Assembly (NCBI GenBank): GCA_947447825.1 | Contig: CANFLL010000049.1 | Coordinates: forward strand, 1 to 32,427 | From: Chitinophagaceae bacterium | GTDB lineage: Bacteria > Bacteroidota > Bacteroidia > Chitinophagales > Chitinophagaceae | Length of the DNA: 32,427 nt | Direction: 5' to 3' | Shown here: positions 14,567-32,427 of the stretch, piece by piece | Layout: the number at the start of each line of letters is the position of its first letter | Position numbering within the stretch: the stretch's first letter is position 1 | Notes under the pieces: model-generated | The model's database searches: none | What the model was told of the DNA's origin: nothing | Seen by the model: only the letters and a program-made list of their open reading frames with translations | Translations under genes and position numbers: made by a program

Positions 14567-14606
14567 ATTTTAGCCTACTACGCATTTAACAAGCAATAGA
14601 ATTGTT

Positions 14607-14774: not shown

Positions 14775-14818
14775 GAATTGTTTAGCGAAGGATGCATAAT
14801 CTACAATCCAAATTTTCA

Positions 14819-15067: not shown

Positions 15068-15109
15068 AAATTGCAAAACTAGAATGCTACGGGTTCTTAA
15101 AAGTATAGT

Positions 15110-15231: not shown

Positions 15232-15254
15232 CAAAACGGAATCAGCTATTATTT

Positions 15255-17654
15255 TTATTTCACCTCATAGTTTACAACTTTGCTGATAGGTAAACCATTT
15301 TCGGTAATGCCCTCAACAATAACACTCCATTTTGAAGAAGCTGTTTTATTAGTAAATACTACTCTTGCACTGCCATTTTCGGTTGTGATATCGGGCTTCC
15401 AGAAAAGAGTGGTTAAATAGTTTTTGTTTAATAAGCTAGCTTTAAACTGCGGCACATAAAAAGATCTTGCTTGATAGTAACCAGTAACTTCTTTGTTTAT
15501 CAAATCGGGACTAGCTTGTTGATTCGCTTCGGGTTTTAAGGTAAGGTTTACAAAATATACATCACCCATAGAATCTCCAACAGAAACTACGTGTTCAATT
15601 ACAATTTTAGAAATCACATTCACAGGCAAAGAATAATAATCTAGTCTTTCAAATAAATCTTCCCGATTTTCAACTGTGATACGTGGCTTATGCTTTTTAG
15701 CTCCAATAGTAATTCCTCCATTATCAAAATCGGATTGCACACCATTCATTTTGTGAAGCAAATAGTTTTCTAGTGTTTCATAGCGTTTCATGTCTTGTTC
15801 GTTAGGCGTAAAAACAGAATCCTTATAGCCAGCATCCATTACTGGGCTAAACCCTATCATTCTAACTTTTGGTTTCACACTAGTTACGGTTACACCCTCA
15901 AATTCATTTACTTCCAAATGACGTGCTTTGTCCATTGCTTCCATCCGTTGATTGGCAGCAGACGTAAATTGTTTATAGATAGAGTTAGTGTCAATATATG
16001 GGTTGAAATAGTCGGAATACTTCACAGGCAATTGATTATTGAACACTTCATCTAATGTGATAAAGCCACCATTTTTTCCTTTGTTTGTTTTAGAAACCAC
16101 CTTAATTCTGCTAGTACCTGTTATGTTAACGCCATCAAAAAAGTAATGCCCCGTAGAATCAGATTGGGCAGAGAACAGTTTTGTGCCAGTTGCTTGGCTA
16201 GCAAATAAGGTTACATTCATACCAGCAAGGGCTTTATCTCCTATCTCTCTTCTTACTTTTCCACTGATGGTGATTCCTCCTTCTGGAATATATTTTATAT
16301 TGATGCCTTGTTGAGCAATTCTTACCCATATAAAATCTCTCCAGCCTTGAGTTAAAAGCAAAAGGTCTAAATCTTTTAGACGGTCTTTATTGTTTTTATC
16401 GAAATACTGGTTTGCTTGTTCTATCTGCCCTTTTATTTCAGATTGTAAATAAACATAGTTCACAATATTGCTAGAGGAAACCGGAACGAGCGTGCCATCA
16501 ACTACCGACATAGAAAGATTAGCTTTTAATGGGCGACCATCAGGATCGAGTGTGTTAATGTTTACTACAGTACTTTCTTGTTTGGAATAAGAACTTTTAT
16601 TTGTAGTAACGGTGGTATTTAAAGGATTTTCTTTTTCAATATAAATTAGTCGCTCACTATTAGGACGGCCTTTTTCGTCAAATAAAGTAATGATGGCAAC
16701 ACCTTGCGGTAATTTTTCTTTAGGTACTTTCAGTGTTATGTTTTCTGCTGTAAGCCTTATGGTATCTTCAAAATACTTTTTACCAGCATGTTTGGCAATA
16801 ATAGAAAGCAGATTGTTTTGAAGAGAAGCTAGTGTTGCTTTATTGGTTTTGATAGTAACTTGAACAAATTCGGTGTCAATGTCTTTAGTAGCAATTAGTA
16901 AACCTTTTGATAATGGCAAATCAAGGTCTCCATTTATTGGTTTGTTTGCATTGATAGTAAATCCTTTTACATCATACGTTTCGTCTGGTATTGGGGTTAG
17001 ATTAAAGCTTCCAAAACCAAGACTATTACTTTTAAATGATACAACCACTTTGTTTTTGCTATCAATAATGTCTCCTTTAACTGCCACTCCTTTGCCTAAT
17101 GCATCTTCCGCCTTAAAAGCAACAACACTAGGCACACTGCTAATTAATGAACCTCCTTCTGGGAAAAAGTGAATAGAATAATTTTCTTTCAACGCATTTT
17201 TGCTAGATGCCTTCGAATCATTGGTAATTGCTTGCGTTTTATTGCCTATTTTAATAATTCGGTCATATATAAAATTGTCACCAAAGTTTTTCATCCAATT
17301 TGTGTAGGCACGAATGTGGTAAGTACCAGCCAACAAACTATCACTCAGCCTGAAGTCGCCATTGCCAACACCATTTTCTAGCCTAATTACATCTCTGTAA
17401 GTTACAGTTGCATCGGGTGCAATTAATTCAACATATAGATTGTTGCTTGTGTAGATTGGGGTATTGTTTTGGGCGTTTAAAAGATAGGCTTTAAACCATA
17501 TATCATCGCCCAGAACATAATATTCTCTATCTAGATGTAGGTAAGCTTTTTCAAAAAAGAGCTTCATTTGTTTGTTAGGGGATTGTGCAATTAACTGGTT
17601 TAAGGACAGAGCTAACAATGCAAATGTTAAGGCTCGAAGTGTAATTTTTTTCAT
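15255..17654 (-). CDS. MG2/carboxypeptidase-regulatory domain envelope protein with plug-like segment
   Basis: 799 residues. A signal peptide (about 1-23, ...LSLNQLIAQ) is followed by an alpha-2-macroglobulin MG2-like domain (about 27-137: EKAYLHLDREYYVLGDDIWF, then KAYLLNA; later AGTYHIRAYTNWM). Further beta-sandwich repeats follow (HFFPEGGSLISSVPSVVAFK). A characteristic LLLLTQGWRDFIW segment comes next, then a carboxypeptidase regulatory-like domain at about 460-530 (ISGKVRREIGDKALAGMNV). A TonB-receptor plug-like part lies near 625-690 (MNGVQSDFDNGG, VNVISKIVIEHV), and the C-terminal beta domain begins TTLFWKPDITTENG. This architecture is widespread in Bacteroidota, usually annotated as a TonB-dependent receptor plug or MG2 protein, and its function is not established. 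It is too short for a transporter barrel. It is divergent from the fasciclin/Sus cluster across a 382-bp gap, so any functional tie is unproven. Confidence 0.75.
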   Translation of the reverse strand: MKKITLRALTFALLALSLNQLIAQSPNKQMKLFFEKAYLHLDREYYVLGDDIWFKAYLLNAQNNTPIYTSNNLYVELIAPDATVTYRDVIRLENGVGNGDFRLSDSLLAGTYHIRAYTNWMKNFGDNFIYDRIIKIGNKTQAITNDSKASSKNALKENYSIHFFPEGGSLISSVPSVVAFKAEDALGKGVAVKGDIIDSKNKVVVSFKSNSLGFGSFNLTPIPDETYDVKGFTINANKPINGDLDLPLSKGLLIATKDIDTEFVQVTIKTNKATLASLQNNLLSIIAKHAGKKYFEDTIRLTAENITLKVPKEKLPQGVAIITLFDEKGRPNSERLIYIEKENPLNTTVTTNKSSYSKQESTVVNINTLDPDGRPLKANLSMSVVDGTLVPVSSSNIVNYVYLQSEIKGQIEQANQYFDKNNKDRLKDLDLLLLTQGWRDFIWVRIAQQGINIKYIPEGGITISGKVRREIGDKALAGMNVTLFASQATGTKLFSAQSDSTGHYFFDGVNITGTSRIKVVSKTNKGKNGGFITLDEVFNNQLPVKYSDYFNPYIDTNSIYKQFTSAANQRMEAMDKARHLEVNEFEGVTVTSVKPKVRMIGFSPVMDAGYKDSVFTPNEQDMKRYETLENYLLHKMNGVQSDFDNGGITIGAKKHKPRITVENREDLFERLDYYSLPVNVISKIVIEHVVSVGDSMGDVYFVNLTLKPEANQQASPDLINKEVTGYYQARSFYVPQFKASLLNKNYLTTLFWKPDITTENGSARVVFTNKTASSKWSVIVEGITENGLPISKVVNYEVK

Positions 17655-18036: not shown

Positions 18037-20238
18037 ATGAATGGATTGTTAAGAAACATCTTGATTGTGACTTTGACATTGTTTGCATTTTCAAGTTGTA
18101 AAAAGAAAGCTTTCGACGATTATTACTATAAGACCAACAATTTAGCTGCCCCAATTTATCAACAATTGCAATCTAGGGGGAATTTTAAAAATTTATTAGC
18201 CTGCATCGACAAAGCAGGATATAGGGATATATTAGGCTCTGCTGGATACTGGACATTTTTTGCGCCAAATGATAGTGCCTTTAAGAAATTTTTTGTTGAG
18301 AGGGGGATTTCTAGTGTTAGCCAAATTGATTCCGCAACTGCAAGAGATATTGTCTCTTTTTGTCTAGTATATAATGCTTTTGCAAAAGCAAGATTAGGTG
18401 ATTTTCAGGATAAAAATGGTTGGGTTGCTAATCAAGCGTTTCGAAGAAGAACTGCTAACTATTTAGGTTATCACAACGATACAACGTTTACTGGACAAAT
18501 TTTGAAGGTTGTTGATATAAATAGAAATACAGGTACTTTGTTTGTTGGTGATAACAATAATAAATATATTCCATATTTTCTGAGTAATTTCATGACAGCT
18601 AGAGGTTTGTCTGCTTCGGATTATAATTATTTCTATCCAAATACTCCTTACACTGGATTTAATGTTGCTAATGCTTCTGTAGTTACACCTGATATTCCAG
18701 CTGAAAATGGTTATATTCATGAGATTGATAGAGTTATATTACCCCTAAAAAACATAGAGCAATATTTAGCTGCTAAACCGGAATACAGTGAATTCAAAAA
18801 GCTTTTTGATAAGTATATGCTGAATTATTTTGTTGGCCAAAACTCAACAGTACGTTATCATAATTTAACGGGCTTAAACGATACAATCTATGTAAAATAT
18901 TATAACACCAATTTAGCTTTTTCATTGAATAATGAAAACTATCAGAAGGTAACAGACAACGATGCACAAACCAATTCTTACACTTTGTTTGCTCCTAAAA
19001 ATGATGCTTTTATAAAGTATAGAGATTCTGTTTTGTTAGAACATTACCCAAGCTTGGATGTAGTGCCTCAATCGATAATTATTGATTTTTTAAGTGCGCA
19101 CATGTTTACAAATGTTGTGTGGCCTACCAAGTTTTCATCAACAACCAATGTTCAATCAGAACCTGCCCGTTTTGACCCTTCTGCTGATGTGATTGATAAG
19201 CAAATTTTGAGTAATGGAAATTTTTATGGTACAAGTAAAGTACAAGCTGCGAATGTTTTTTCAACTGTGTATGGTAAGCCTTACTTAGACCCTAATTACT
19301 CGTTGATGACTAGAGCATTGGATTTAAATCTTAGATACAGCATTACTGTTCCTTCTGTGAAATACACAGTTTTTATGATGTCTGATGCCTTGTTACAAGC
19401 AAAGGGATACGACTATAATTTCACACAAAGTCAATGGCAATATACGGTTCCTGGAACTACAAACGTAACAGTCAGTAGTACTGTGAGGGATAACCTTCTG
19501 AGGATATTAGCCACTCATGTTGTAAAAACACCAAATGACGAGATGAAAGATTTGTCCTCCGGAAGTGGTATTATTGAGACTTATGGCGGTGAATATATAA
19601 AGTGGAACAGTGGAAAATTAAGTTCAGCAGGTACAGGCACTTATAAAGTAACTGCTGGTGCATCAAAAGTAGCTTCGAATGGTAGAGTATATTATTCAGA
19701 TAGTTTGTTAGAATATAGTGACACACTAGTTGGAACAACACTAAAAAAGCTTGCAAATGCACCAGGTTCAGATTTTAGTTATTTTTATCAATATCTATCA
19801 AGTTCATCCCTTTATACTGCTTCTAATGATGATATTACTGGGGTTAAAGTGGGAGGTTTTTATACATTATTTGTTCCAAATAATGACGCTATAGTGTATG
19901 CAACTCAAGCTGGATTATTACCTGTAAATAGTGACTCTTCTTTAAATTTCACTCCAACTGAATTGAGTGACCAAATTTTGGTGAATAACTTTATTAAGTA
20001 TCATATTGTTAGTGGAACCACAATAATTACCGATGGAAATAAACTTGGTAAATTCAATACTCTTTACAAAGATGCCTCAGGAGGAACAGGGACGATTTCG
20101 TTAAATAAAAGTAGCAATGGAACAATTCAATTGAAGGACCAAGCTAATACTAATACCGCAAACTTTATTATGAAAAGAAGCAACATCTTAGCAAATAGAT
20201 GCACTATTCACTTAATTGACAATTATCTACAGTATTAA
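18037..20238 (+). CDS. Fasciclin-domain lipoprotein 1 (four fasciclin-like domains)
   Basis: 733 residues. A lipoprotein signal ends in AFSSC with Cys21, followed by KKKAFDD, a Lys then Asp-rich start that resembles the surface-export signals described for Bacteroidota lipoproteins. Four fasciclin-like units can be traced. Unit 1, about 48-235: NFKNLLACIDKAGY, TFFAPNDSAF, NGYIHEIDRVI. Unit 2, about 250-410: SYTLFAPKNDAF. Unit 3, about 418-560, degenerate: KYTVFMMSDALL, LATHVV. Unit 4, about 575-733: YTLFVPNNDAIV, FIKYHIV. Fasciclin domains usually mediate adhesion or ligand binding. As first gene of the cluster, 40 nt before the SusC gene, it is probably an outer-membrane surface partner of that transporter. 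No enzymatic domain is seen. It has no extra C-terminal domain, unlike the other two fasciclin proteins here. Confidence 0.88.
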   Translation: MNGLLRNILIVTLTLFAFSSCKKKAFDDYYYKTNNLAAPIYQQLQSRGNFKNLLACIDKAGYRDILGSAGYWTFFAPNDSAFKKFFVERGISSVSQIDSATARDIVSFCLVYNAFAKARLGDFQDKNGWVANQAFRRRTANYLGYHNDTTFTGQILKVVDINRNTGTLFVGDNNNKYIPYFLSNFMTARGLSASDYNYFYPNTPYTGFNVANASVVTPDIPAENGYIHEIDRVILPLKNIEQYLAAKPEYSEFKKLFDKYMLNYFVGQNSTVRYHNLTGLNDTIYVKYYNTNLAFSLNNENYQKVTDNDAQTNSYTLFAPKNDAFIKYRDSVLLEHYPSLDVVPQSIIIDFLSAHMFTNVVWPTKFSSTTNVQSEPARFDPSADVIDKQILSNGNFYGTSKVQAANVFSTVYGKPYLDPNYSLMTRALDLNLRYSITVPSVKYTVFMMSDALLQAKGYDYNFTQSQWQYTVPGTTNVTVSSTVRDNLLRILATHVVKTPNDEMKDLSSGSGIIETYGGEYIKWNSGKLSSAGTGTYKVTAGASKVASNGRVYYSDSLLEYSDTLVGTTLKKLANAPGSDFSYFYQYLSSSSLYTASNDDITGVKVGGFYTLFVPNNDAIVYATQAGLLPVNSDSSLNFTPTELSDQILVNNFIKYHIVSGTTIITDGNKLGKFNTLYKDASGGTGTISLNKSSNGTIQLKDQANTNTANFIMKRSNILANRCTIHLIDNYLQY

Positions 20239-20278
20239 CGACTATTTAAACCACCAGCATATTAACTTAATTAAGGGT

Positions 20279-23200
20279 ATGAAAAATTTATTTAAACACT
20301 TACAGCTTGCTTTTTTGGCTCTCACAACTTTGTTTTGCATTAGTGCTAATGCGCAAGATGCACCTGCTAAATTAATTGTGAGAGGAACAGTAACTGATAA
20401 AAAAGACAATTCGCCTGTTGCGCATGTTTCAATCACTGAAATGGATGCTGATGGAAGAACCATTCGAGGTGTTAGCAGTGATATTGATGGGAATTTTGCT
20501 TTGAAAATTAATAATAGTCGTGATAAAATCAGTTTTGCTTATATTGGTTTTATAACCCAAACAATAGAGATTAAAGGAAGAACAACTATAAATGTTAAAC
20601 TGGAATCAAGTAGCACTGAGATGGGTGAAGTTATTGTGGTATCTGGTCCTAAAACAAATAATGGAAATTTGAATGTTGCTGATAGAGATTTAACTACAGC
20701 TTCTGCAAAAGTAAATGCTAAAGATTTAGAAGAACTGGGTTCTGCAACAATTGACCAAGCTTTACAAGGAAGAATGTCTGGTGTTGATATTAGTGCTTCC
20801 TCAGGAGACCCTGGTGCTCCAATATCCATTAAAATTCGTGGAACTTCCTCTATAAATGCTAGTACAAATCCTTTGATTGTTGTGGATGGTTTACCGCTTG
20901 AAACAACAATACCCTCAGATTTTAATTTTGGTACGGCTGATGATCAAGGTTATGCTCAGTTATTGAATATAGCACCTTCTGACATTAAAGAAATTGTGGT
21001 TCTAAAGGATGCTGCTGCAACTGCAATGTGGGGAGCAAAAGGCGCAAGTGGGGTACTATTAATTACCACTAAAAGAGGTGGGATTGGTAAGCCAGTTTTG
21101 ACATATACTGCTAGGGAAATTATTTCTAAGCAACCAAGAGTTATTCCTTTACTAAATGGTGATCAATATTCAAACTTAATTCCTGAAGAATTCATGAATA
21201 GAAATGGTGTTCCACTTAACACCTTAACAATCAAGGAATTTGCTTATGATAAAAATGATCCCTACTATTATAATAATTATAGTCAAAATACTGATTGGTT
21301 AGGTGCTATTACTAGATTAGGATTAACACACGATCATAATTTATCTATGACAGGTGGTGGTGAAAAAGCAAGATATTTTGCCTCTTTAGGTTATTATTAC
21401 CAAACTGGTACTACCATTGGAACAAGTCTTACTAGGATTAATACAAGGGTCAATTTGGATTATGTAGTTTCTGATAGAATTAAGTTTAGAACAGATTTTG
21501 CATACACATACACTGATAACCCAAAAAGTTATTACCCTGGCTCTGCTTCAAATGAATTAAGAAATGTTGCTATCAATAAAATGCCTAATATGAGCATTTA
21601 TGAGTATAATGAACAAGGCGTTTTGACTGGCAACTATTTTTCACCTGCTTCAAATATTCAAGGACAGTATCCTTCAACTTACAATCCTGTTGCAATGGCG
21701 AATACTGCTAAAAATAGGACTATTGGCAATCGTATTACCCCTACATTTAATGTTCAATATGATATTATACCTAAAACTCTTGTGGCTACAGCCGATATTC
21801 GGTTTGATGTAAACAATACAAAAAACAATACATTCTTACCGCAAATAGCTACTGGTAGACCAACTACTGAAACAGTTGTTAATAGAGCTTATGATGGTGA
21901 TGTAGATGCGTTTAATGTTCAAACAAAAACAAATCTTCTTTTTACACCTAGACTACCAAAAAATCATACACTTTCTTCAGTCTTATCTATTCAGACTTAT
22001 GATAATAAGTCTTTATCTAACCAAGCTATGACTTCAAATACTGCATCTTCATTATTACAAGATGCCTCTACACCTGCAAGAACTACTAATACCGAATTGG
22101 GTGTTTCAGCAGGCTACTCTCAAACTAGAACTTTAGGTGCATTAATAAATGCTCAGTATGGGTTTAAAGGGAAGTACATTGTAAATGTAGGTCTAAGAGG
22201 TGATGCAACCTCTAGATTATCTCCTTCTAACAGGTTCAAGCTATTTCCATCTATATCTACTAGGTGGAGAGTTTCAGGAGAATCTTTTATGAAAAAATTG
22301 ACTTTTATCAATGATTTAAGTTTGAGAGCTAGTTACGGCTTATCTGGAAACTCTCCAAAATATGACTATTCTTTCTACAGTAGTTATAGCAATTTCGGTT
22401 GGACTTATCAAGGTCAAAGTGGTGTTTATCCTTCCTCTGTAGAATTATCAAACCTAAGATATGAAGTAATTAATGGAAAAAATTTAGGTCTTAATCTAAT
22501 AGTTCTTAAAAACAAAGTAAACATTGATGTAGAGGTTTATAAAAATACTACAAGAGATTTATTATTCTATGGACTGAAAATTCCAACTTTTAATGGTTAT
22601 TCTTCTGTTGATATGAATGGAGGTACTTTAGATAATCAAGGTTGGGAATTTAGTATTTTAGCTAGTGTTGTTAAAAAGCCAACATGGACATTAGATTTCA
22701 ATTTTAATGTTTCACATAATGAAAATGTTCTTCGTAGTGTTTCGCCTTTTATCACTACTAGAAGCGGAGATGTTACAACAAATGGTAGTTACTTAGCTTT
22801 GTTACAGCTGAATAATCCTTATGGTTCTATATATGGATATAGATATAAAGGCGTTTATGAAGATGCTGATGCAACAATAGCTACTGATGCAAATGGTAAA
22901 AAAATTATTGGTCCCAATGGTCAAGCAGTTTATATGCGTTTTAATTACCCTAAAACTGACTATTTATTTCAAGCAGGTGATGCAAAATATGATGATATAA
23001 ATCATGATGGAAGTATAGATTATAAGGATGTTGTATACCTGGGAAATAGTAATCCTGCTTACACTGGAGGATTTGGCCCAACTGTTTCATATAAGAAAAA
23101 TTGGAAGTTCAGTGCCTTTTTTAATTTTAGATCCAACTATAAAGTAGTTAATGGAACCAAGATTACTACCACTAATATGTATGGGTTTAATAATCAAAGT

Positions 23201-23557
23201 ATTGCTGTGCTTAGAAGATGGAGAAAGCCAGGTGATAAAACTGATATTCCACGTGCATTATATGCTTCTGGGTATAACTGGTTAGGAAGCGATCGATATG
23301 TTGAAGATGCCTCTTTTATTCGATTTCGTTCTATAACTGTACGTTATAATTTGACAGGGGAAATTTTGAAAAGGTTAAAAATGCGTAACATCAGTGCGTA
23401 TCTTACCGCTGAGAACTTAATAACCTTTACAAATTATACAGGTCAGGATCCAGAGGTTGCTCCGAGGGGTATTTCTGGTCCATTCACGGTTGTTACTGAT
23501 AATAGTACAACGCCTCCAGTTTTTACTTTAACTTTTGGTGTTACGGCCTCTTTCTAA
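20279..23557 (+). CDS. SusC/RagA-type TonB-dependent outer-membrane transporter 1
   Basis: 1092 residues from the ATG at 20279. An upstream in-frame ATG (20216) would overlap the previous gene and put 21 residues before the signal peptide. Signal peptide ...LFCISANAQ (about 1-26); carboxypeptidase-D regulatory-like domain (about 33-120: RGTVTDKKDNSPVAHVSI, SSDIDGNFAL); possible TonB box EVIVVSG; plug (about 160-265: IDQALQGRMSGVDIS, SIKIRGTSSINASTNPLIVV, then DGLPL); and a 22-strand-type barrel ending TLTFGVTASF with a C-terminal Phe. A DxNHDGSIDYKD loop, conserved in many SusC proteins, is present at about residue 910. It imports a bulky ligand, often an oligosaccharide or peptide, using TonB energy and the SusD partner encoded 24 nt downstream. 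The substrate is unknown. Confidence 0.95.
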   Translation: MKNLFKHLQLAFLALTTLFCISANAQDAPAKLIVRGTVTDKKDNSPVAHVSITEMDADGRTIRGVSSDIDGNFALKINNSRDKISFAYIGFITQTIEIKGRTTINVKLESSSTEMGEVIVVSGPKTNNGNLNVADRDLTTASAKVNAKDLEELGSATIDQALQGRMSGVDISASSGDPGAPISIKIRGTSSINASTNPLIVVDGLPLETTIPSDFNFGTADDQGYAQLLNIAPSDIKEIVVLKDAAATAMWGAKGASGVLLITTKRGGIGKPVLTYTAREIISKQPRVIPLLNGDQYSNLIPEEFMNRNGVPLNTLTIKEFAYDKNDPYYYNNYSQNTDWLGAITRLGLTHDHNLSMTGGGEKARYFASLGYYYQTGTTIGTSLTRINTRVNLDYVVSDRIKFRTDFAYTYTDNPKSYYPGSASNELRNVAINKMPNMSIYEYNEQGVLTGNYFSPASNIQGQYPSTYNPVAMANTAKNRTIGNRITPTFNVQYDIIPKTLVATADIRFDVNNTKNNTFLPQIATGRPTTETVVNRAYDGDVDAFNVQTKTNLLFTPRLPKNHTLSSVLSIQTYDNKSLSNQAMTSNTASSLLQDASTPARTTNTELGVSAGYSQTRTLGALINAQYGFKGKYIVNVGLRGDATSRLSPSNRFKLFPSISTRWRVSGESFMKKLTFINDLSLRASYGLSGNSPKYDYSFYSSYSNFGWTYQGQSGVYPSSVELSNLRYEVINGKNLGLNLIVLKNKVNIDVEVYKNTTRDLLFYGLKIPTFNGYSSVDMNGGTLDNQGWEFSILASVVKKPTWTLDFNFNVSHNENVLRSVSPFITTRSGDVTTNGSYLALLQLNNPYGSIYGYRYKGVYEDADATIATDANGKKIIGPNGQAVYMRFNYPKTDYLFQAGDAKYDDINHDGSIDYKDVVYLGNSNPAYTGGFGPTVSYKKNWKFSAFFNFRSNYKVVNGTKITTTNMYGFNNQSIAVLRRWRKPGDKTDIPRALYASGYNWLGSDRYVEDASFIRFRSITVRYNLTGEILKRLKMRNISAYLTAENLITFTNYTGQDPEVAPRGISGPFTVVTDNSTTPPVFTLTFGVTASF

Positions 23558-23581
23558 AATTAATTCTGAAAATTTATTCAA

Positions 23582-25069
23582 ATGAAATATAAATCATTTT
23601 TTAATATTTTACTTTTTTCATTAACGTTATTCCTTTCAACGTCATGTAACAAGTATTTATCTCTTCAACCTCAAGATGGTATAATTCGTCAAGAATTTTG
23701 GCAAACTAAGGAACAAGTTCAATCCGCAGTTATTGGTTGTTATGCTTCTCTGTTAGGCAATTTGAGTGAAACTTTATTTATGTGGGGGGAATTAAGAGCC
23801 GATATGATTGCTCCTGGAGTTAACATGACTCAAGACGAAACTGATATTATGAATGTAAACACCTTGCCTACAAATTCTGTAACAAGTTGGACTAGTGCTT
23901 ATCAAGTAATTAATTATTGTAACACTGTTATTGATTTTGCCCCCGGTGTTTTGTCAAACGATAATACTTTTACCAAACAGCAATTAAATCAATATTTAGC
24001 TGAAGTAAGAACGTTACGTGCTATGATGTATTTTACTTTGGTAAAAACTTTTAGAGATGTTCCGTTGAAATTGAAATCTTCTGCAAATGATAAAGATTTA
24101 TTGCTCCTTCCAAAAACATCTGGAGATTCTGTACTTGCACAAGTGTTAACAGATTTAAAATTTGCAGACAGTAATGCTGTATTTACTTATGGTAATACCA
24201 TTACTGATAAAGGTAGAATTAATAAGTATACAGTAAAAGCTTTATTAGCAGATGTCTACTTGTGGATGGATAACTATGCTGAGTGCGAAGCAGCATGTAA
24301 TTTTATTATTGACTCAAAAAAATATGGTTTGATTGCTGGTAATTCAGGTTGGTTCAACACTTTATACTATAACGGTAACTCAAATGAAGGAATATTTGAA
24401 TTTCAGTTTGACCAACAAAAACTAAACACATTTTATAATGTCTTTTTATCCTCCAGAGCTCGTTATTTAGCTTCTCCAAATGTTTTGGATTTAGTGTTTA
24501 CGATTGATTATTTGAATGAAAAAAATAAAGATATTAGAGGTGATGGTGGCTCTGTTCGTTCAAGTGACAACTCAATTTGGAAATATTTGGGCGCCACTGC
24601 TACTGCTACAAGAACTACTGATGCGTCTTATGCCCATTGGTTTGCCTACCGTTATGCAGATATTTTGTTGATGAAAGCAGAGGCTATTAATCAAATTGGT
24701 GGTCGTGGAACTGAAGCCTTATCACTTGTATATAATATTAGAGATCGTGCAAATGCACTTGATGCTACAGATTTAAACCCTGACCCAACTGATAGAAATG
24801 CTGTTGCTGATTTCATTTTAGCCGAGAGGTCAAGAGAATTTGCTTTTGAAGGTAAGCGTTGGTATGATATTTTAAGGAATGCTAAGCGCAATAATTATGA
24901 AAGAATTGACATACTTCTTAATATGATTTCTAAAACGGTTACTCCTAATCGTCAAATTTCTGCTATTAATAAGTATAAAGATCCTGAACATAACAGTCAT
25001 TATTTACCAATTTATTACTATGAAATTCAGTCTGATCCTAATTTAGTTCAAAACCCTTTTTATCAATAA
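23582..25069 (+). CDS. SusD/RagB-type surface lipoprotein 1
   Basis: 495 residues. The lipoprotein signal ends LSTSC with Cys22, followed by the usual SusD opening (NKYLSLQPQDGI, EFWQTKEQVQSAVIGCYASL). The TPR-like helices and C-terminal features of the RagB/SusD family are present: YRYADILLMKAEAINQIGG, VYNIRDRANA, FILAERSREFAFEGKRWYDI (the ER-x-x-E-x-x-F-E-G-x-R-W-x-D signature) and a final ..NLVQNPFYQ. It acts as the ligand-capturing lid over the SusC transporter encoded just upstream (24 nt gap). The binding pocket cannot be assigned to a substrate from the sequence. Confidence 0.95.
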   Translation: MKYKSFFNILLFSLTLFLSTSCNKYLSLQPQDGIIRQEFWQTKEQVQSAVIGCYASLLGNLSETLFMWGELRADMIAPGVNMTQDETDIMNVNTLPTNSVTSWTSAYQVINYCNTVIDFAPGVLSNDNTFTKQQLNQYLAEVRTLRAMMYFTLVKTFRDVPLKLKSSANDKDLLLLPKTSGDSVLAQVLTDLKFADSNAVFTYGNTITDKGRINKYTVKALLADVYLWMDNYAECEAACNFIIDSKKYGLIAGNSGWFNTLYYNGNSNEGIFEFQFDQQKLNTFYNVFLSSRARYLASPNVLDLVFTIDYLNEKNKDIRGDGGSVRSSDNSIWKYLGATATATRTTDASYAHWFAYRYADILLMKAEAINQIGGRGTEALSLVYNIRDRANALDATDLNPDPTDRNAVADFILAERSREFAFEGKRWYDILRNAKRNNYERIDILLNMISKTVTPNRQISAINKYKDPEHNSHYLPIYYYEIQSDPNLVQNPFYQ

Positions 25070-25087
25070 TTCTTTAATCGCTTAATT

Positions 25088-26761
25088 ATGAAAAAAAACA
25101 TCTTTATAGTAATTGTTTTATGTTTCTGTTCGGCAGTAACTATTTCAATGTTTACTGGTTGCAAAAAAACACCACTTGCTTATACTACAACTAGTGATGT
25201 TAACATAGTTGATTATTTAAGACTTTACCCTCAAAAATATTCCGAATTTGTTAAAATCTTAGATAGAACTAATATTAGTCCTTTTCTGAATGCTTACGGT
25301 GCTTACACTGTTTTTGCGCCCACCAATTCTGCAATTAAACTGTACTTGCAGAAAATTGGTAAATCTTCAACAGATTTGTTAGATACCGCATCTCTAGCTA
25401 AGATTTGTAAGTTTCATTTGATTTCGGATACCATTACAACAGGTGCTTTTACTGATGGTAAATTACCTTCACCAACCATGTATAACGGTCAATATTTAAT
25501 TACTGGTGTAAGCCAGTCAGGCTCTACTGTCATTAATAGACAGGCCACTTTAACTCAATCGAATATTTTAACAGGGAACGGGTACATTCATGAAATTGAC
25601 CACGTACTTGAACCGCCAACGCTCACAATTGCACAAACAATTGAGGCAAATGCAAATTATTCTATATTTACCCAAGTTTTAAAAGCAACTGGTTTTTATG
25701 ATACTTTGAATATTGCCAATAATCCTGATACAACTAGAAAATTTCTTACATGCTTCGCTGAGCCAGATTCTGTTTTTGCAAAACAAAATATTAATTCTTA
25801 TGCTGACATGGTTGCCAGGTATAGTACTATGAAAAATCCTAGAGATACAACCGATAGTTTATATCTTTTTGCTGCTTACCACATTTTACCTGCTTTAAAA
25901 TATGTTGCTGATATTGTTTCAACTCAATCTCATTTAACACTTGCTCCACAGTCAGTACTTACTGTAGTTCTTAGTGGTCAAGCTGTTTACCTAAACCAAG
26001 TAACATTTAATGGTGTTTTTGAGCAAGGTGTATTACTAAATAGGTTTAATAGTGATATTAGTTGTACAAATGGCGTTTTTCATATATTAAGCGAACAATT
26101 AATTCTTAAAACTAGAACACCTTACAGAGTGGACTTTGATCCAGGCGATCAGCCAGAGATTCGTAAATTAACCTCTATTTTTAGAAGAGCTGGTAAATCA
26201 CAAACTTTTAATTATGGTCAATTAAAATATGTAAACTGGCAGGCCACTTCACTTACCTTTTCTTATTACACTGAAGCTTCAACTACTTCAAACTATTATT
26301 GGTTTGACGATGGAGTATCTTTTAATCTCAGAGCTAAGTTTAATAGTTGGATTGAATTCACAACACCACTAATTGTAAAAGGAAAATATAAATTATGGTG
26401 CAATTTTAGACGTGCTTCTATGGGACAATATATTCAGGTATCTGTTGATGGTAAAGATTTACCTAACATAGTTGACTTTGCTACTTCACGTCCTAGTGGC
26501 ACACCTGATGTTTTGCTCTCAAAACCTGTTCCTTACAAAATATATACTGTAAATCAGACGCAAAAAAATAATTTCGGAATGTGTGCGGGTAATATTGATA
26601 TACCAACAACGGATAGACATGTCATACGTTTAACAAGTATAAAAGATCAAGGTACTGGTACAGGGAATAGTGTAACATTAGATTTTTTCCAATTTATTCC
26701 TGTAAATGAAGAATCACAGATTAGACCTTTGTATAATCGTGATGGTTCAATAGTTCCCTGA
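25088..26761 (+). CDS. Fasciclin-domain lipoprotein 2 with C-terminal jelly-roll-like module
   Basis: 557 residues. The lipobox MFTGC places the lipidated Cys at 25. Two fasciclin-like domains follow. Domain 1, about 38-175: YSEFVKILDRTNISPFLNAY, YTVFAPTNSAI, GNGYIHEIDHVL. Domain 2, about 185-340: NYSIFTQVLKATGFYDTL, FAAYHIL, TNGVFHILSEQLIL. The C-terminal part (about 345-557) is beta-rich: TPLIVKGKYKLWCNFRR, QYIQVSVDGKDL, DRHVIRLTSI and VTLDFFQFIPV. That order, a constricting strand, a 'VDG' turn, 'H-x-I-R-L' and a closing 'LDFFQF', resembles family-6-type carbohydrate-binding or galactose-binding folds, but only as a visual match. The gene starts 18 nt after the SusD gene and is probably co-translated with it. 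Confidence 0.85.
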   Translation: MKKNIFIVIVLCFCSAVTISMFTGCKKTPLAYTTTSDVNIVDYLRLYPQKYSEFVKILDRTNISPFLNAYGAYTVFAPTNSAIKLYLQKIGKSSTDLLDTASLAKICKFHLISDTITTGAFTDGKLPSPTMYNGQYLITGVSQSGSTVINRQATLTQSNILTGNGYIHEIDHVLEPPTLTIAQTIEANANYSIFTQVLKATGFYDTLNIANNPDTTRKFLTCFAEPDSVFAKQNINSYADMVARYSTMKNPRDTTDSLYLFAAYHILPALKYVADIVSTQSHLTLAPQSVLTVVLSGQAVYLNQVTFNGVFEQGVLLNRFNSDISCTNGVFHILSEQLILKTRTPYRVDFDPGDQPEIRKLTSIFRRAGKSQTFNYGQLKYVNWQATSLTFSYYTEASTTSNYYWFDDGVSFNLRAKFNSWIEFTTPLIVKGKYKLWCNFRRASMGQYIQVSVDGKDLPNIVDFATSRPSGTPDVLLSKPVPYKIYTVNQTQKNNFGMCAGNIDIPTTDRHVIRLTSIKDQGTGTGNSVTLDFFQFIPVNEESQIRPLYNRDGSIVP

Positions 26762-26804
26762 TTCTATTGAATTTTTCGAATGATTATTGATTTTAAAGTA
26801 AGAA

Positions 26805-28253
26805 ATGATGCGAAATAATAAATTAAGTCTGTTAATGTTTTTGGTTGTAATAACAACTATTTTAGCGGCATGCTCAAAGAAATGGAATGAACATGACCAA
26901 ATTACTGATCCAGCTATTTCAAATAACTTGTTTCAGGCAATAAGTAAAAATACTTCACTGTCACTATTTAGCAAATTATTGGTTAAAAGTGGGTATGATA
27001 AAATTATTTCATCTTCCAAATCATATACTGTTTGGGTTCCGACTAATCAAGCTTTAGCTACCCTAGATTCGTCGATTATTAATGATTCTATCAAATTAAA
27101 GGCTTTTGTTGGTAATCATATTGCAAATCTTGCTTATACAACTGGTTCAGACCAAAGAGTAGCAATGATTAATGGAAAGTATATACAGTTTGCAGGAAAT
27201 ACTTTTGACTCTGCTAATATTAGTACTCCAAATTTATATGCTGTAAATGGGGTTTATCATATAATTGATAAATTTATTCCTAGAGTTGATAACTGTTGGG
27301 AATTCGTAAATAATAATTCTTCTTTTTCTTTATTTAAAAAGGCCCTCACTGATCTTAATTACATATATTTTGATTCTACTTTAGCTACTCAAATTGGAAC
27401 TGATCAATTAACTGGTAATGCTATTTGGGATTCTACTAATGCTAAAGTTATCAGAAACAAGTTTTTAGATAATGTTCAGAATATCGCGGATGAGAGCAAT
27501 CAATTTACATTATTCTTATTAAATGATAATTCATTTAATACAGAATTCAATAAATTAAGTCCATGGTTTATCACACCTAGCATCGATACAATGAATAAAT
27601 TAGTTAACTCTTTTTTAATTAAGGATTTAGCTGTTAAAGGTTCTTACAGTGCATCACAGCTGCCAGATACTTTACTATCAACATCTAATGTAAAAATTCC
27701 CATTGATAAATCTCAAATAGTGGCGTCCTACAAAACAAGTAATGGATACGTACATGTAATGAATAAATTAAATATCCGCTTAACTGATAAATTTCCACCT
27801 ATAGTTATAGAGGGTGAAACACCCACAGCCTTTGCCTCAACAGATAAAGCTGCAAATACATTTTACCGAACTAGTAGAAATCCTGTAACTGGTTTAGTCT
27901 TTAAAGATATACTTATGCAAAACTATGGTTGGGCTAATTACTATATCAGATACACCAAAACTGAAGTGCCTGCGATGAAGTATAATGTATATTGGGTTGC
28001 TATTAATGATTATTCAAGTAATCCAATTTGGAATCAAACTTTTGCCATTGATTCAAATTATGTACCTAGTCCTGCTGCTTTTACAGTACCTGTTGCTCGT
28101 AATAATTACAATGAAGTTTTTCTAGGTCAGATTGAAATTTTGTCTTATCGAAGTAAAATTAATATGTATGTGATTGGTCCCAATTCTACATCTACTACAT
28201 CAGGAAATACATCAATTTCTCTAGACTACATAAAATTAGTTCCTGCCTTCTAA
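26805..28253 (+). CDS. Fasciclin-domain lipoprotein 3 with C-terminal jelly-roll-like module
   Basis: 482 residues. The lipobox ILAAC places the lipidated Cys at 23, followed by SKKWNEHD. Two fasciclin-like domains are visible. Domain 1, about 38-162: SLFSKLLVKSGYDKII, YTVWVPTNQALATL, VNGVYHIIDKFI. Domain 2, about 170-320: SSFSLFKKALTDLNYIYF, FTLFLLNDNSF, SNGYVHVMNKLNI. The last 155 residues start at PIVIEGETPTAFAS and end TSISLDYIKLVPAF, the same type of ending as in fasciclin protein 2, so the two share a related but diverged C-terminal module. Two adjacent ATG codons open the gene; either could be used. It lies 43 nt after fasciclin 2 and 51 nt before the second SusC gene. Confidence 0.83.
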   Translation: MMRNNKLSLLMFLVVITTILAACSKKWNEHDQITDPAISNNLFQAISKNTSLSLFSKLLVKSGYDKIISSSKSYTVWVPTNQALATLDSSIINDSIKLKAFVGNHIANLAYTTGSDQRVAMINGKYIQFAGNTFDSANISTPNLYAVNGVYHIIDKFIPRVDNCWEFVNNNSSFSLFKKALTDLNYIYFDSTLATQIGTDQLTGNAIWDSTNAKVIRNKFLDNVQNIADESNQFTLFLLNDNSFNTEFNKLSPWFITPSIDTMNKLVNSFLIKDLAVKGSYSASQLPDTLLSTSNVKIPIDKSQIVASYKTSNGYVHVMNKLNIRLTDKFPPIVIEGETPTAFASTDKAANTFYRTSRNPVTGLVFKDILMQNYGWANYYIRYTKTEVPAMKYNVYWVAINDYSSNPIWNQTFAIDSNYVPSPAAFTVPVARNNYNEVFLGQIEILSYRSKINMYVIGPNSTSTTSGNTSISLDYIKLVPAF

Positions 28254-28304
28254 AGTTTTGCACCACTAATCTTATTCGTTTTATAATTTTGAATTCAACA
28301 TAAA

Positions 28305-31300
28305 ATGCTAAAAAATATATTTATAGGTTGTGTAATTGTAAGTGCTTCTTTAGTTGGGTTGACTAATTTAATGGCACAAGCAGAGCCTCAAAAGACTGTT
28401 GGTCAGTCAAATAATTTGTCTACTTCAAAGGCTACTGGTGTTATTAAAGATGCTGTTACTGGTAAACCTTTAGCAGCTGTGAATGTCACAATCCCAGATT
28501 TTGCTGCTGCTTTAACCGATGATAACGGAAAATTTTCTATTAAAGTGCCTAACTATTATGTTACCTTATTTGTTAGTGGCGAAGGTTTTCAGTCTAAGGA
28601 AATACCATTACGCGGCAATCCTGTTGTCAACATATCTTTATACGAAGACTCTTACAATTCTATTTATGATGTAGCAATCCTGCCTTTTGGTTCTAAAACC
28701 AAAAATCAACTCGTAAACGCAGTTTCCTCAGTAAGTACTTTAGATAATTGGGCCAGAAATAATGAATCAGCTGATGGGTACATTCAAGGAAAGGTTGCTG
28801 GTCTAAATTCTACAATGCGTTCTGGTACTCCCAACATTGGTGCATATACAAACATTAGAGGTTACAATTCCCTTTATTCAACTAATCAGCCCTTGGTTAT
28901 TGTAGATGGCGTAATATATGATTATAATGATTATGGAACTTCTATGATTTCTAAGCATTATACTAATGCAATTGGTGACATTGACATTAGAGACATTGAA
29001 AATATTACGGTTGTTAAAGATGGGTTATCTACTTATGGTACTAAAGGAGCAAATGGAGTTGTTATAATAACTACTGGACATGCAAAACAATTAAATACTC
29101 ATATTGATGCAGGTTTTTATTATGGAGTAAATTTTGCACCAAAAAAATTGCCTGTAATGAATGCAAGTGATTATCGCACTTACCTCACAGACGTTTTAAA
29201 GTCTCGTGGTTGGTCTAATAGCACTATTCTGGCCCAACCTTATATGAATGATGATACTAGTTCCGCAAATCCTAATTATTATAGATATCATAATGAAACC
29301 GATTGGCAAGATGAAGTTTTAGGTAACACTTCCAATAATAATTATTATCTTAAAGTTTCAGGTGGTGATAACATTGCAAAATATGTATTATCTATGGGTT
29401 TTTTGTCTAACCCAAGTGTCACAAAAGGGTCAAACCTAAAAAAGTACAATATTCGTTTGAATGCTGATTTTAATATCATTAGACGTTTGACTGCTACCTC
29501 TGCATTTACATTTAATTTTTATGATCAAAGCATTAGAGACCAAGGAATGTCAACCAAAACAAATCCAATTTATTTAGCACTTACTAAAGCACCTTTCATG
29601 AATAATCATGAAATATCTGATCTTGGTTTAGTTTCACCAAACTTGGCTGATACTGATACATTGGGTGTTGGTAATCCAACAGCAGTAGTACAGAAAATGA
29701 TTGGTTCAAGTAAAGTTTATAGGTTTTTTGGTTCTATTGGTTTAAAATATACAATAAATCAATATTTAAGTGTTGGTAGTATAATTGGTACAACTGTAGA
29801 CGAGGTTCGTGAACAGTATTTTGTTCCGAGAAAAGGCGTTGCAAACGATACTACAACTACTGCCTATGTTGATAGTCGTTTAGCTGGTCAGGCAAAAAGG
29901 ATTTATAGCTTGTATAATGATACATATTTAAATTATACTAGAACTTTTAATCGCATACATGTTCTTAATGCACGTGGAGGAGTTCGGACGCTTGATAGTA
30001 GAAATGAACAAGATTTTGCAACTGGAGCAAATTCTGCAACTGATGATTTTATTAGTGTTGGCACAGGTTCAAATTTACTTCGTAAAGTAGGTGGGGATGT
30101 TGGTAAATATGGTTGGTCTAATGCTTATTTCGGGGTTGATTACGCTTTGTATAACAAATATTTCTTTGCTTTTAATACAGCATTTGATGCTTCATCCAGA
30201 TTTGGTAAAGACATAAATAACACTTTAAAGATTGGTGGTAATAGTTATGCTGTTATGCCCTCTGTTGGTGCATCCTGGGTAGTTTCTTCTGAACCTTTTA
30301 TGACTAAATACAGCTTTATCAATGTATTAAAATTGAGAGCTACAATTAGTAAAACAGGTAATGATGATATTGGAAATTACACTGCCAAGCAATCTTATGT
30401 TTCTCAAAACTTGTTAGGTATGCAAGGATTAGTTCGTGGTAATGTTGCTAACCCTCATTTGCAATGGGAATCAAATACTAAATACAATGGTGGTATAGAT
30501 TTGGCAATTTTAAATGAAAGGGTATCACTCAGTTTTGATGTGTTCCAAAATTACACAGATAATATGTTAGCTTATGAACCCTTACCTGTTGCTTCTGGAT
30601 TCAGCTATGCGATCACTAATTCGGGTTCTATGAAAACTTTCGGTTTTGATTTAAGCTTAAATAGCAGATTGATCAATAAAAAGTCATTTAAATGGGATTT
30701 AGGATTTAATATATCTGCATTTAGAAATAGGGTTACTTCTTTGCCTAACACTATTAATGAAACTATTGTTAAGTATGGTGGTGCTATCATTCAAACAGTA
30801 GTTGGTGCGCCTTCGAGCAGTTTTTGGGGTTATAAAACAGGCGGAATTTATAAAACTGATGAAGATGCTTCAAAGGATGGATTTACTAAACTTCAAAGTA
30901 ATGGAACTTATGCATCCTTCAAGGGTGGTGATGTTAAATTTGTTGATGTAAATGGGGACAAAGTAATTGATGAAAATGACCGTCAGTTTATTGGTAATCC
31001 TACACCAAATTATGTGGGAGGAATATCTACTCAATTAGTTTACAAACGCTTTTCTTTAGATGCGATGTTCACGTTTAGTCAAGGTAATAAAATTTATAAT
31101 GGAGTTCGTGCAGCGTTGGAATCTGAATCAACCACGGAAAATCAATTGAATAGTGTAATTAATAGATGGCGTGCCCCTGGACAAGTTACAAATATACCTA
31201 GGGTAAATTATGGTGATCCAATGGGTAATAGTAGTTTTTCTGATAGATGGATAGAAGATGGTTCTTATTTGAGGTTAAAGACAATAACAGCTAGTTACCA

Positions 31301-31496
31301 ATTACCAATTAAACCTGGAGTTGCTTTTAAATATGTTACGGTTTATATTACTGGTAATAATCTTTTAACCTTTACAAAATATCTTGGTTATGATCCTGAG
31401 TTTTATTCATCAGAGTCTGTAATTGCTAGAGGGGTTGATGTAGGTTTAGAGCCGCAGTTTAAATCTGTTATAACAGGCGTTAGAATTGGTTTATAA
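28305..31496 (+). CDS. SusC/RagA-type TonB-dependent outer-membrane transporter 2
   Basis: 1063 residues. Signal peptide ...LVGLTNLMAQ (about 1-25); carboxypeptidase-D regulatory-like domain (about 44-115: GVIKDAVTGKPLAAVNVTI, LTDDNGKFSIKV); plug (about 145-258: YIQGKVAGLNSTM, TNIRGYNSLYSTNQPLVIV, then DGVIYDYNDYG); and a barrel with the SusC loop VDVNGDKVIDENDRQFIGNP near residue 885, ending SVITGVRIGL. No clear TonB box was seen between the first domain and the plug (the segment reads YNSIYDVAILPFGSK). The sequence is clearly different from the first SusC of the cluster, so the pair is not a recent duplication. Its SusD partner follows after 16 nt. Confidence 0.94.
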   Translation: MLKNIFIGCVIVSASLVGLTNLMAQAEPQKTVGQSNNLSTSKATGVIKDAVTGKPLAAVNVTIPDFAAALTDDNGKFSIKVPNYYVTLFVSGEGFQSKEIPLRGNPVVNISLYEDSYNSIYDVAILPFGSKTKNQLVNAVSSVSTLDNWARNNESADGYIQGKVAGLNSTMRSGTPNIGAYTNIRGYNSLYSTNQPLVIVDGVIYDYNDYGTSMISKHYTNAIGDIDIRDIENITVVKDGLSTYGTKGANGVVIITTGHAKQLNTHIDAGFYYGVNFAPKKLPVMNASDYRTYLTDVLKSRGWSNSTILAQPYMNDDTSSANPNYYRYHNETDWQDEVLGNTSNNNYYLKVSGGDNIAKYVLSMGFLSNPSVTKGSNLKKYNIRLNADFNIIRRLTATSAFTFNFYDQSIRDQGMSTKTNPIYLALTKAPFMNNHEISDLGLVSPNLADTDTLGVGNPTAVVQKMIGSSKVYRFFGSIGLKYTINQYLSVGSIIGTTVDEVREQYFVPRKGVANDTTTTAYVDSRLAGQAKRIYSLYNDTYLNYTRTFNRIHVLNARGGVRTLDSRNEQDFATGANSATDDFISVGTGSNLLRKVGGDVGKYGWSNAYFGVDYALYNKYFFAFNTAFDASSRFGKDINNTLKIGGNSYAVMPSVGASWVVSSEPFMTKYSFINVLKLRATISKTGNDDIGNYTAKQSYVSQNLLGMQGLVRGNVANPHLQWESNTKYNGGIDLAILNERVSLSFDVFQNYTDNMLAYEPLPVASGFSYAITNSGSMKTFGFDLSLNSRLINKKSFKWDLGFNISAFRNRVTSLPNTINETIVKYGGAIIQTVVGAPSSSFWGYKTGGIYKTDEDASKDGFTKLQSNGTYASFKGGDVKFVDVNGDKVIDENDRQFIGNPTPNYVGGISTQLVYKRFSLDAMFTFSQGNKIYNGVRAALESESTTENQLNSVINRWRAPGQVTNIPRVNYGDPMGNSSFSDRWIEDGSYLRLKTITASYQLPIKPGVAFKYVTVYITGNNLLTFTKYLGYDPEFYSSESVIARGVDVGLEPQFKSVITGVRIGL

Positions 31497-31512
31497 TTCA
31501 TTAAAAGTATCA

Positions 31513-32427
31513 ATGAAATTTATGAAATTCATATTAATAATATCAAAGAATAGTATTTTCGCACTTGCTTTTCTTACTTGTTTTTTTGCAGTTTCTTGCA
31601 ATAAGATTTTAAATAAAGACCCTGAAACAACTTTAGATTCCAAAAATGTTTATAGGAATATTTTTGATGCAGATGCTGCTGTAATTGGTGTTTATGGTAA
31701 GTTCATGGGGCTTGCCAAACAGTATGTTTTAATGAATGAGTTACGAGCTGATCTTTTATCTGTAACTGATAACGCTGATAATGAATTAAGAGAAATTAGT
31801 ACCCATTCCACGACTCAAAATAACAGTTACACTAGTCCAAAGCCTTTTTATTCTTTAATTAATGAATGTAATGATGTCTTGAAAAACTTTGATATCATGC
31901 TTAAGGATAATAAATTTAAAATAACTGAATACAATCAACGCTATTCTGATGTTGCTTGCATACGTTCTTGGCTATACCTTCAATTAGGTATTCATTTTGG
32001 AAATATTCCTTATGTTACCAGTTCCTTAGACAATGTTGATGCTGTGGTTAAAGATTCACTACAGTTTAAACCAATTTCTTTCAATACATTGTTAGACACT
32101 TTAATAAAATTTACTAGTAATCTTCCTTATATTTCTCCATATTCTGCTGGTAGCTCTTTACTTTTAACAGTTGATGGATCATCTACCACTAACTTTTTTA
32201 TTGAAAAAAACGCACTACTTGGAGATTTAAATTTATGGCGTGGTAAATACAATGCCGCAGCAACCTACTATAGGGCATTGATGGAGGGTTCGGGTTATTT
32301 CTTTGCTAGTGGTTCAGGTGCATATTATGACAATTTTAAAGTTTCTAATTTTTCTTCTATCCCTGGTTATTTAGATATTAGTTACCTTAGATATCATGAG
32401 AATGATTTGAGATCTTTTATTGATAAT
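31513..32427 (+). CDS. SusD/RagB-type surface lipoprotein 2 (3' end outside window)
   Basis: The first 305 codons of an open frame run off the right edge. The ATG at 31513 gives a lipoprotein signal ending FAVSC with Cys29, then NKILNKDPETTL, a typical SusD opening. NIFDADAAVIGVYGKFMGLA, LMNELRADLL and INECNDVLKNFDIML fit the family, as does RSWLYLQLGIHFGNIPYV, which matches the R-x-x-x-Y-x-L-x-x-x-x-G-x-[IV]-P-x-V region of SusD proteins. M4 (31522) is a possible alternative start. It starts 16 nt after the second SusC gene and must pair with it. Confidence 0.92.
   Translation, partial: MKFMKFILIISKNSIFALAFLTCFFAVSCNKILNKDPETTLDSKNVYRNIFDADAAVIGVYGKFMGLAKQYVLMNELRADLLSVTDNADNELREISTHSTTQNNSYTSPKPFYSLINECNDVLKNFDIMLKDNKFKITEYNQRYSDVACIRSWLYLQLGIHFGNIPYVTSSLDNVDAVVKDSLQFKPISFNTLLDTLIKFTSNLPYISPYSAGSSLLLTVDGSSTTNFFIEKNALLGDLNLWRGKYNAAATYYRALMEGSGYFFASGSGAYYDNFKVSNFSSIPGYLDISYLRYHENDLRSFIDN

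What the first reader, a model, noticed from the sequence alone, without database searches (positions are those of the whole stretch)
18037..32427. Double SusCD uptake cluster built around three fasciclin lipoproteins
Seven co-directional genes with gaps of 16-51 nt read fasciclin(x4)-SusC-SusD-fasciclin(x2)-fasciclin(x2)-SusC-SusD. Classical polysaccharide utilisation loci put glycosidases, surface glycan-binding proteins and a sensor beside SusCD. Here the surface-binding-protein positions are filled by fasciclin lipoproteins, and no degradative enzyme or regulator is visible in 14 kb. Inference: a two-transporter system for a ligand captured by fasciclin domains (adhesion-type glycoconjugate, protein or extracellular polymer), with one fasciclin set per SusCD pair.
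Basis: partly seen in the sequence, partly recalled or inferred. Interest (0 to 1): 0.72.

Follow-up and report, generated by a model that had tools for sequence, protein, structure and literature searches.

The report
Fasciclin-equipped pectin uptake gene cluster
A conserved seven-gene cluster in several Bacteroidota looks like the uptake half of a system for eating a pectin (rhamnogalacturonan), with fasciclin proteins, better known from cell adhesion, in the place where glycan-grabbing surface proteins usually sit.

Summary
In detail: fasciclin-SusC-SusD-fasciclin-fasciclin-SusC-SusD, co-directional, gaps 16-51 nt. The cluster recurs in 18 loci of 17 genomes; 17 keep the order as far as visible. 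The window ends inside the second susD; another contig of the genome holds the rest, followed by an esterase of a type linked with pectin. In relatives the cassette adjoins rhamnogalacturonan lyases, GH28, GH105, GH2, L-rhamnose genes or an HTCS sensor, and it co-occurs with PL11. Best reading: transport half of a rhamnogalacturonan-I PUL, resembling BT4164-BT4169 of B. thetaiotaomicron, with FAS1 lipoproteins as surface glycan-binding proteins. Against: diagnostic lyases adjoin only 3 of 18 cassettes, no carbohydrate gene or sensor was recognised beside 6, and binding is untested.

The parts
18037..20238 (+). F1: lipoprotein with four FAS1 domains (733 aa)
20279..23557 (+). C1: SusC/RagA-type TonB-dependent transporter (1092 aa from this ATG; longest ORF starts at 20216)
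   Evidence: TIGR04056 703 bits; start read, orthologues 1083-1100 aa
23582..25069 (+). D1: SusD-type lipoprotein (495 aa)
   Evidence: PF07980 4e-30, PF14322 1.4e-14
25088..26761 (+). F2: lipoprotein, two FAS1 domains (about residues 36-342) plus a C-terminal CBM-like sandwich (344-540)
26805..28253 (+). F3: lipoprotein, one FAS1 domain, a probable second one and an unassigned C-terminal part
   Evidence: PF02469 1.7e-15; second FAS1 by hhalign only, C-terminal part unresolved
28305..31496 (+). C2: second SusC/RagA-type transporter (1063 aa)
   Evidence: TIGR04056 643 bits
31513..32427 (+). D2: second SusD-type lipoprotein, cut by the contig end; the remainder lies on contig C80 of the same genome (minus strand, frame open to that contig's end)
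   Evidence: PF14322 29.0 bits; C-terminal part on C80 at 72% identity to the G003 orthologue
15255..17654 (-). Divergent neighbour U799 (MG2 and CarboxypepD_reg matches, both below cut-off); membership in the system is not claimed
   Evidence: beside F1 also in G003, G004, L033 and, as a fragment, L031

Best explanation
The seven genes are the outer-membrane capture-and-uptake half of a polysaccharide utilisation system for pectin, most likely rhamnogalacturonan-I (RG-I). The FAS1 lipoproteins F1, F2 and F3 sit on the cell surface and hold the polymer or its fragments; F2 binds sugar at least through its C-terminal CBM-like module. Lyases and esterases, in some genomes encoded beside the cassette and in others elsewhere, cut and deacetylate the chain. 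Two SusCD transporters (C1-D1, C2-D2), probably for different oligosaccharides, import the pieces with TonB energy; periplasmic enzymes then release the sugars. Shown: gene content, conserved order, predicted domain folds, enzyme neighbourhoods, co-occurrence with PL11. Inferred: surface location, sugar binding by FAS1 or by the CBM-like module, division of labour between the transporters, and RG-I rather than another pectin.
For: The gene after D2 in the own genome is an AGA-YXIM_GBD + GDSL esterase, 84% identical to the gene in the same place in G003; G004 has it too. Relatives: G026 has PL4 and GH2 directly after D2, and GH105-like, CE12-like, GH28, SASA and GH115 before F1. G027 has PL11 after and PL26-type before. 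G030 has PL9 before and GDSL, CE12-like, PL11, GH2 after. G016 has GH2 after, and a rhamnose-isomerase-like gene and an FGGY kinase before. G308a has GH105-like, GH95 and CE12-like on one side and rhamnose-isomerase-like, FGGY kinase, RhaD and RhaT 4-10 kb away on the other. Two Mucilaginibacter have an HTCS beside F1. PL11 is in 6 of 9 cassette genomes versus 1 of 50 others among 59 relatives (p 1.2e-5), and in 7 of 8 versus 14 of 387 in a 395-genome phylum sample (p 3.2e-9) (related genomes are not independent). The own genome has PL11, a PF07470 (GH88/GH105) gene and two GDSL genes on C124, one GH106 match and 8 GH28 matches. Pairwise identities of the seven proteins correlate at 0.67-0.92 over 13 loci. 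Precedent: the B. thetaiotaomicron RG-I PUL uses BT4164/BT4165 and BT4168/BT4169 with SGBP BT4167 (PMC8002723, section 9 read).
Against: Diagnostic lyases adjoin only 3 of 18 cassettes (G026, G027, G030). No carbohydrate gene or sensor was recognised beside 6 of 18: G018, G395, G078, G257, G308b (an FN3/LamG/CHU_C protein) and L033 (right side not held); only some of their flanking ORFs were scanned with Pfam, the rest only compared with 18 annotated proteins. G012 has PL11 without a FAS1 match; G003, G018, G026 and G449 (the genome of L036) have the cassette without a PL11 match. In 10 PL11 loci (of 14 genomes with strong PL11 and no full-length F2) no F1/F2/F3 relative was seen, so fasciclins are not needed for PL11-type loci in general. 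Distant FAS1-SusCD loci lie beside sialidase-like proteins and a sulfatase (G034) and beside GH10 (G005), so FAS1 does not itself mean pectin. GDSL is a broad family, so the esterase alone is weak evidence. No binding or expression data.
Confidence: 0.7

Rival explanations
1. The cassette takes up a different plant cell-wall glycan (galactan or arabinan side chains, homogalacturonan, or an acetylated or glucuronate-bearing hemicellulose) whose genes merely travel with RG-I genes.
For: GH2, GH95, GH115, SASA and AXE1-type enzymes in the neighbourhoods are compatible with side chains or hemicelluloses; the F2 sandwich resembles xanthan-binding, CBM6 and CBM35 modules, not one RG-I-specific family.
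Against: PL4, PL9, PL11 and PL26-type lyases and L-rhamnose genes beside some cassettes point to the RG-I backbone; PL11 co-occurrence.
Confidence: 0.18
2. One reading: FAS1 domains capture an adhesion-type protein, glycoconjugate or matrix polymer for uptake, without a dedicated degradative system.
For: FAS1 is known from adhesion proteins, and F1 matches TGFBIp and periostin best; 6 of 18 loci show no recognised carbohydrate gene or sensor.
Against: 11 of 18 cassettes have a carbohydrate-related gene in the fetched flanks and one more only an HTCS; PL11 co-occurrence; CBM-like module on F2.
Confidence: 0.08
3. Two adjacent, independent SusCD operons that happen to be neighbours.
For: C1 and C2 fall in separate orthologue sets, each with its own susD.
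Against: Gaps of 16-51 nt, cassette kept together in 18 loci, correlated divergence.
Confidence: 0.04

Closest known systems
Bacteroides thetaiotaomicron RG-I backbone PUL (BT4145-BT4183) with SusCD pairs BT4164/65 and BT4168/69 and SGBP BT4167
   Same: Two SusCD pairs with two locus numbers between them (BT4166, BT4167), an outer-membrane lyase next (BT4170), further lyases, GH28, GH106 and GH2 in the system (PMC8002723 section 9; that BT4175/BT4183 are PL11-like and BT4174/BT4176 GH105 is recalled). The PL9 beside the G030 cassette matches the BT_4170-like C-terminal model just below its cut-off (29.4 of 30 bits).
   Different: Here FAS1 lipoproteins stand at the binding-protein positions and a four-FAS1 protein leads the cluster. 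Relation of BT4166/BT4167 to F2/F3 was not tested: no B. thetaiotaomicron sequence was at hand.
[quoted passage not shown] 6 legend)
   Same: A FAS1 protein inside a SusD-bearing PUL: the association had been seen before (section 19 read).
   Different: Named in a legend only, with GH5/GH9/GH26; no role proposed in that section; orthology not tested.
TGFBIp / periostin (four-FAS1 adhesion proteins)
   Different: Bacterial lipoprotein in an uptake cluster; 19% identity; overall rmsd 12.8, so domain arrangement differs.
Xanthan-binding (MiXBM 7ehg, xanthan lyase 6f2p), CBM6 and CBM35 modules
   Different: Sandwiches of unrelated function (Cry proteins, laminin) score 9.3-9.9 in the same list, so only the two top matches stand out. 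No sequence hit to these chains.

Membership tests
SusCD-type polysaccharide utilisation locus | adjacent susC and susD homologues | tested here: met
   two pairs
SusCD-type polysaccharide utilisation locus | linked carbohydrate-active enzymes | tested here: met
   none inside the window; esterase after D2 on contig C80; lyases and glycosidases beside the cassette in G016, G026, G027, G030, G308a; none recognised in G018, G395, G078, G257, G308b, L033 as far as scanned
SusCD-type polysaccharide utilisation locus | linked regulator (HTCS or other) | tested here: inconclusive
   HTCS beside F1 in both Mucilaginibacter loci; none seen in the window; 4 of 16 ORFs of C80 scanned
RG-I PUL | rhamnogalacturonan lyase (PL4, PL9, PL11 or PL26) in the locus | tested here: inconclusive
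   beside 3 of 18 cassettes; in the own genome PL11 lies on another contig, C124, of unknown distance
RG-I PUL | growth on, or induction by, RG-I | not testable with these tools
   needs culture
Surface glycan-binding protein (SusE/SusF-positioned) | lipoprotein encoded beside susCD | tested here: met
   position and lipobox-like Cys at 21, 25 and 23; no signal-peptide predictor was run
Surface glycan-binding protein (SusE/SusF-positioned) | binds glycan at the cell surface | not testable with these tools
   only a CBM-like predicted fold in F2
FAS1/fasciclin domain family | PF02469 above the gathering score | tested here: met
   110.6, 97.0 and 57.7 bits, cut-off 22
Xanthan-binding/CBM6/CBM35-like modules (F2 C-terminus) | beta-sandwich fold of these modules | tested here: met
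Xanthan-binding/CBM6/CBM35-like modules (F2 C-terminus) | sequence membership or conserved ligand residues | tested here: inconclusive
   Pfam at E 0.001 gave for this part only DUF5108 below its cut-off; ligand residues not mapped

The most novel reading that the evidence does not exclude
FAS1-bearing lipoproteins are an undescribed general class of surface glycan-binding protein of Bacteroidota PULs: the FAS1 array is a reusable binding unit or scaffold, with members tuned to RG-I (this cassette), a xylan-type glycan (G005, beside GH10) and sialylated or sulfated glycans (G034), and FAS1 here serves nutrient capture rather than adhesion.
Probability: 0.4. Interest if true: 0.65.

Novelty: new variant of a known kind. 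Interest (0 to 1): 0.45.

Why it matters
FAS1 proteins of Bacteroidota have been read as adhesion proteins (for example in PMC10199937, passage seen). A conserved cassette that ties them to pectin uptake would give them a testable nutritional role, offers a substrate prediction for this SusCD lineage, and has carriers with named strains (Hufsiella ginkgonis HMF7056, Mucilaginibacter rivuli HMF5004) in which to test it.

Tried and rejected
Adhesion-only reading: not first choice because of the enzyme neighbourhoods. Pfam DUF5108 (PF17133) as a marker: 5 of 395 phylum genomes match at E 0.001, 1 over the cut-off, none of 14 control genomes. A Bacteroidetes-type promoter box (TANNTTTG, motif recalled) upstream of the first fasciclin gene: in the window, but in none of the nine other loci printed before the script stopped with an error; dropped, and its shuffle control never finished. 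RNA families in the window: only tRNA-Cys. Ten PL11 loci (about 20 kb each side; 10 of the 14 genomes with strong PL11 and no full-length F2) searched with profiles of the seven proteins: no F1/F2/F3 match and no tandem double SusCD in the rows printed (ORFs of 200 aa or more). hhalign of the F3 C-terminal part against the F2 sandwich: probability 5.

Limits of counts. The phylum searches scored at most 3 candidates per genome, so 8 of 395 for full-length F2 is a lower bound. In one search nine matches have 566-918 bits and the next has 118; I took the nine as orthologues. 'Strong PL11' (over 600 bits, 21 genomes) is my cut; the tool's tally at E 0.001 is 26 of 395. Dropped as duplicates: L029 (= G003), L030 (= G004) and L031 (= G005:C107). 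L031 and L032 hold only F1 and part of C1 and are not among the 18; G005 is counted as a cassette genome among the 59 relatives on that fragment. only printed the length of a table I had typed from earlier calls; it is no evidence. Fold rows naming insect toxins or a virus protein are shared folds and were not pursued.

Literature: 'fasciclin' with SusC+SusD (1 paper), with TonB-dependent+Bacteroidetes+operon (2), polysaccharide utilization (3), TonB+pectin+Bacteroid (0), carbohydrate-binding+TonB-dependent receptor (1), surface glycan-binding protein (0), SusD-like (0); FAS1+SusD+Bacteroidetes (2). Seen: passages of PMC10199937, passages and section 19 of PMC4891872, passages and section 9 of PMC8002723; the others as listings only. 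In what I saw, no FAS1 protein is described as a PUL binding protein. Only open-licence PMC papers are held.

Full report
What is there. The window is the whole of contig C49 (32,427 bases) of a 4.65 Mb, 187-contig genome. From 18037 to its right end seven co-directional genes read F1 (FAS1 x4), C1 (SusC), D1 (SusD), F2 (FAS1 x2 + sandwich), F3 (FAS1, probably x2), C2 (SusC), D2 (SusD, cut). With ATG starts in keeping with relatives the gaps are 40, 24, 18, 43, 51 and 16 nt. All seven PF02469 matches found in the own genome fall in these three genes.

Across the contig end. A search of the own genome with the C-terminal part of the G003 D2 found the missing part on contig C80 (72% identity, 22067-22840 minus; frame open to the contig's end at 22891), and the G003 gene after D2 is matched by the next gene on C80 at 84%. 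That gene has AGA-YXIM_GBD and GDSL domains and a weak match to pectin acetylesterase PaeY (42 bits, cut-off 1000). I recall this domain pair as typical of CE12 rhamnogalacturonan acetylesterases; no call assigned CE12. Of the 16 ORFs called on C80, four were scanned: this esterase, an AXE1-type esterase and a helicase on the other strand, and an FG-GAP protein. The two contigs do not overlap, so their adjacency rests on synteny with G003 and G004.

Conservation. Eighteen loci in 17 genomes (two in G308) hold the cassette as far as they are visible; seventeen show F1 first, and G027 has F2-F1-C1-D1-F3-C2-D2. A complete D2 was seen in 13; the window's is cut, L034-L036 end in C2 and L033 in F2. 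Between those 13 loci the proteins are 26-85% identical, and the seven sets of pairwise identities correlate at 0.67-0.92. Carriers include Chitinophagaceae MAGs, Hufsiella ginkgonis, two Mucilaginibacter and three genomes of another, unnamed family of the same class. In a sample of 395 phylum genomes 8 hold a full-length F2 (9 genes, 566-918 bits; next best 118).

Neighbours. G003, G004 and the own genome: the same esterase after D2. G026: PL4-type lyase and GH2 after; GH105-like, CE12-like (both by blastp), GH28, SASA, GH115 before. G027: PL11 after, PcRGLX-type (PL26, label recalled) before. G030: PL9 before; GDSL, CE12-like, PL11, GH2 after. G016: GH2 after; rhamnose-isomerase-like (TIGR02629 487 bits, cut-off 646.75) and FGGY kinase before. 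G308a: GH105-like, GH95, CE12-like on one side; on the other, 4-10 kb away, a rhamnose-isomerase-like gene (501 bits, below cut-off), an FGGY kinase (60 bits to rhamnulokinase, far below cut-off), and RhaD and RhaT, both over a cut-off. G205: SASA+GDSL esterase after, then UvrB; amidase, M28 peptidase and a phytase-like protein before. L035: HTCS and GH2 before F1; L036: HTCS on the opposite strand. L034: a GH105-like fragment 9.4 kb before F1. None recognised: G018 (one flank ORF scanned by Pfam, a thioesterase), G395 (transposase, TonB receptor, two ABC-2 proteins), G078 (aminotransferase, DsbD, M16 peptidase), G257 (HMGL-like), G308b (FN3/LamG protein with a CHU_C signal, and one 421-aa protein without a match), L033 (none scanned; right side not held). 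So diagnostic lyases adjoin 3 of 18, some carbohydrate-related gene is in the fetched flanks of 11 of 18, only an HTCS in one, and none in 6. Relatives of the isomerase and the kinase also sit in 5 of 10 PL11 loci of genomes without a full-length F2.

Co-occurrence. PL11 (PF21348) is in 6 of 9 cassette genomes and 1 of 50 others among 59 relatives, the own genome included. In the 395-genome sample, with a 600-bit cut, it is in 7 of 8 and 14 of 387; by genus, five of six cassette genera have it. The genomes are related, so the p-values (1.2e-5, 3.2e-9) overstate the case. The own genome's PL11 lies with a PF07470 (GH88/GH105) gene and two GDSL genes on C124; the genome also has one GH106 and eight GH28 matches, so a full RG-I pathway is plausible.

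How it likely works: see Best explanation. The nearest described architecture is the B. thetaiotaomicron RG-I system with two SusCD pairs and SGBP BT4167 (PMC8002723, section 9 read). A FAS1 gene had been drawn in a Gramella PUL (PMC4891872, section 19 read). Distant FAS1-SusCD loci in G034 (sialidase-like BNR proteins, sulfatase) and G005 (GH10) suggest that FAS1 proteins serve several glycans. Whether FAS1 itself binds sugar, or only spaces the sandwich and docks on SusD, is open.

Verdict. Real, conserved, and mostly explained: very probably a pectin PUL transport cassette with unusual binding proteins. Interest moderate.

Noticed in passing
window 15255-17654 (-): Divergent 799-aa protein with MG2 and CarboxypepD_reg matches below cut-off, beside F1 also in G003 and G004 (80%) and L033 (51%), not matched beside the other cassettes.
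   Followed up: partly
window 3-7685 (-): Open-ended 2561-aa protein with an FN3 domain at the left contig end.
   Followed up: no
window 14455-14526 (+): tRNA-Cys (gca).
   Followed up: no
L051/L052 (G034): Diverged FAS1-SusCD cluster beside several BNR sialidase-like proteins, a sulfatase and an MFS transporter.
   Followed up: partly
L053 (G005:C52): Diverged FAS1-SusC-SusD-FAS1 cluster beside a GH10 protein with CBM_4_9.
   Followed up: partly
L104 (G308:C13) and L105 (G308:C9): One genome with two copies of the cassette, one in a pectin/rhamnose setting, one beside an FN3/LamG protein with a type IX secretion signal.
   Followed up: partly
window 18037-32427 versus 1-18036: G+C 32.9% in the cassette against 36.9% in the rest of the contig.
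   Followed up: no
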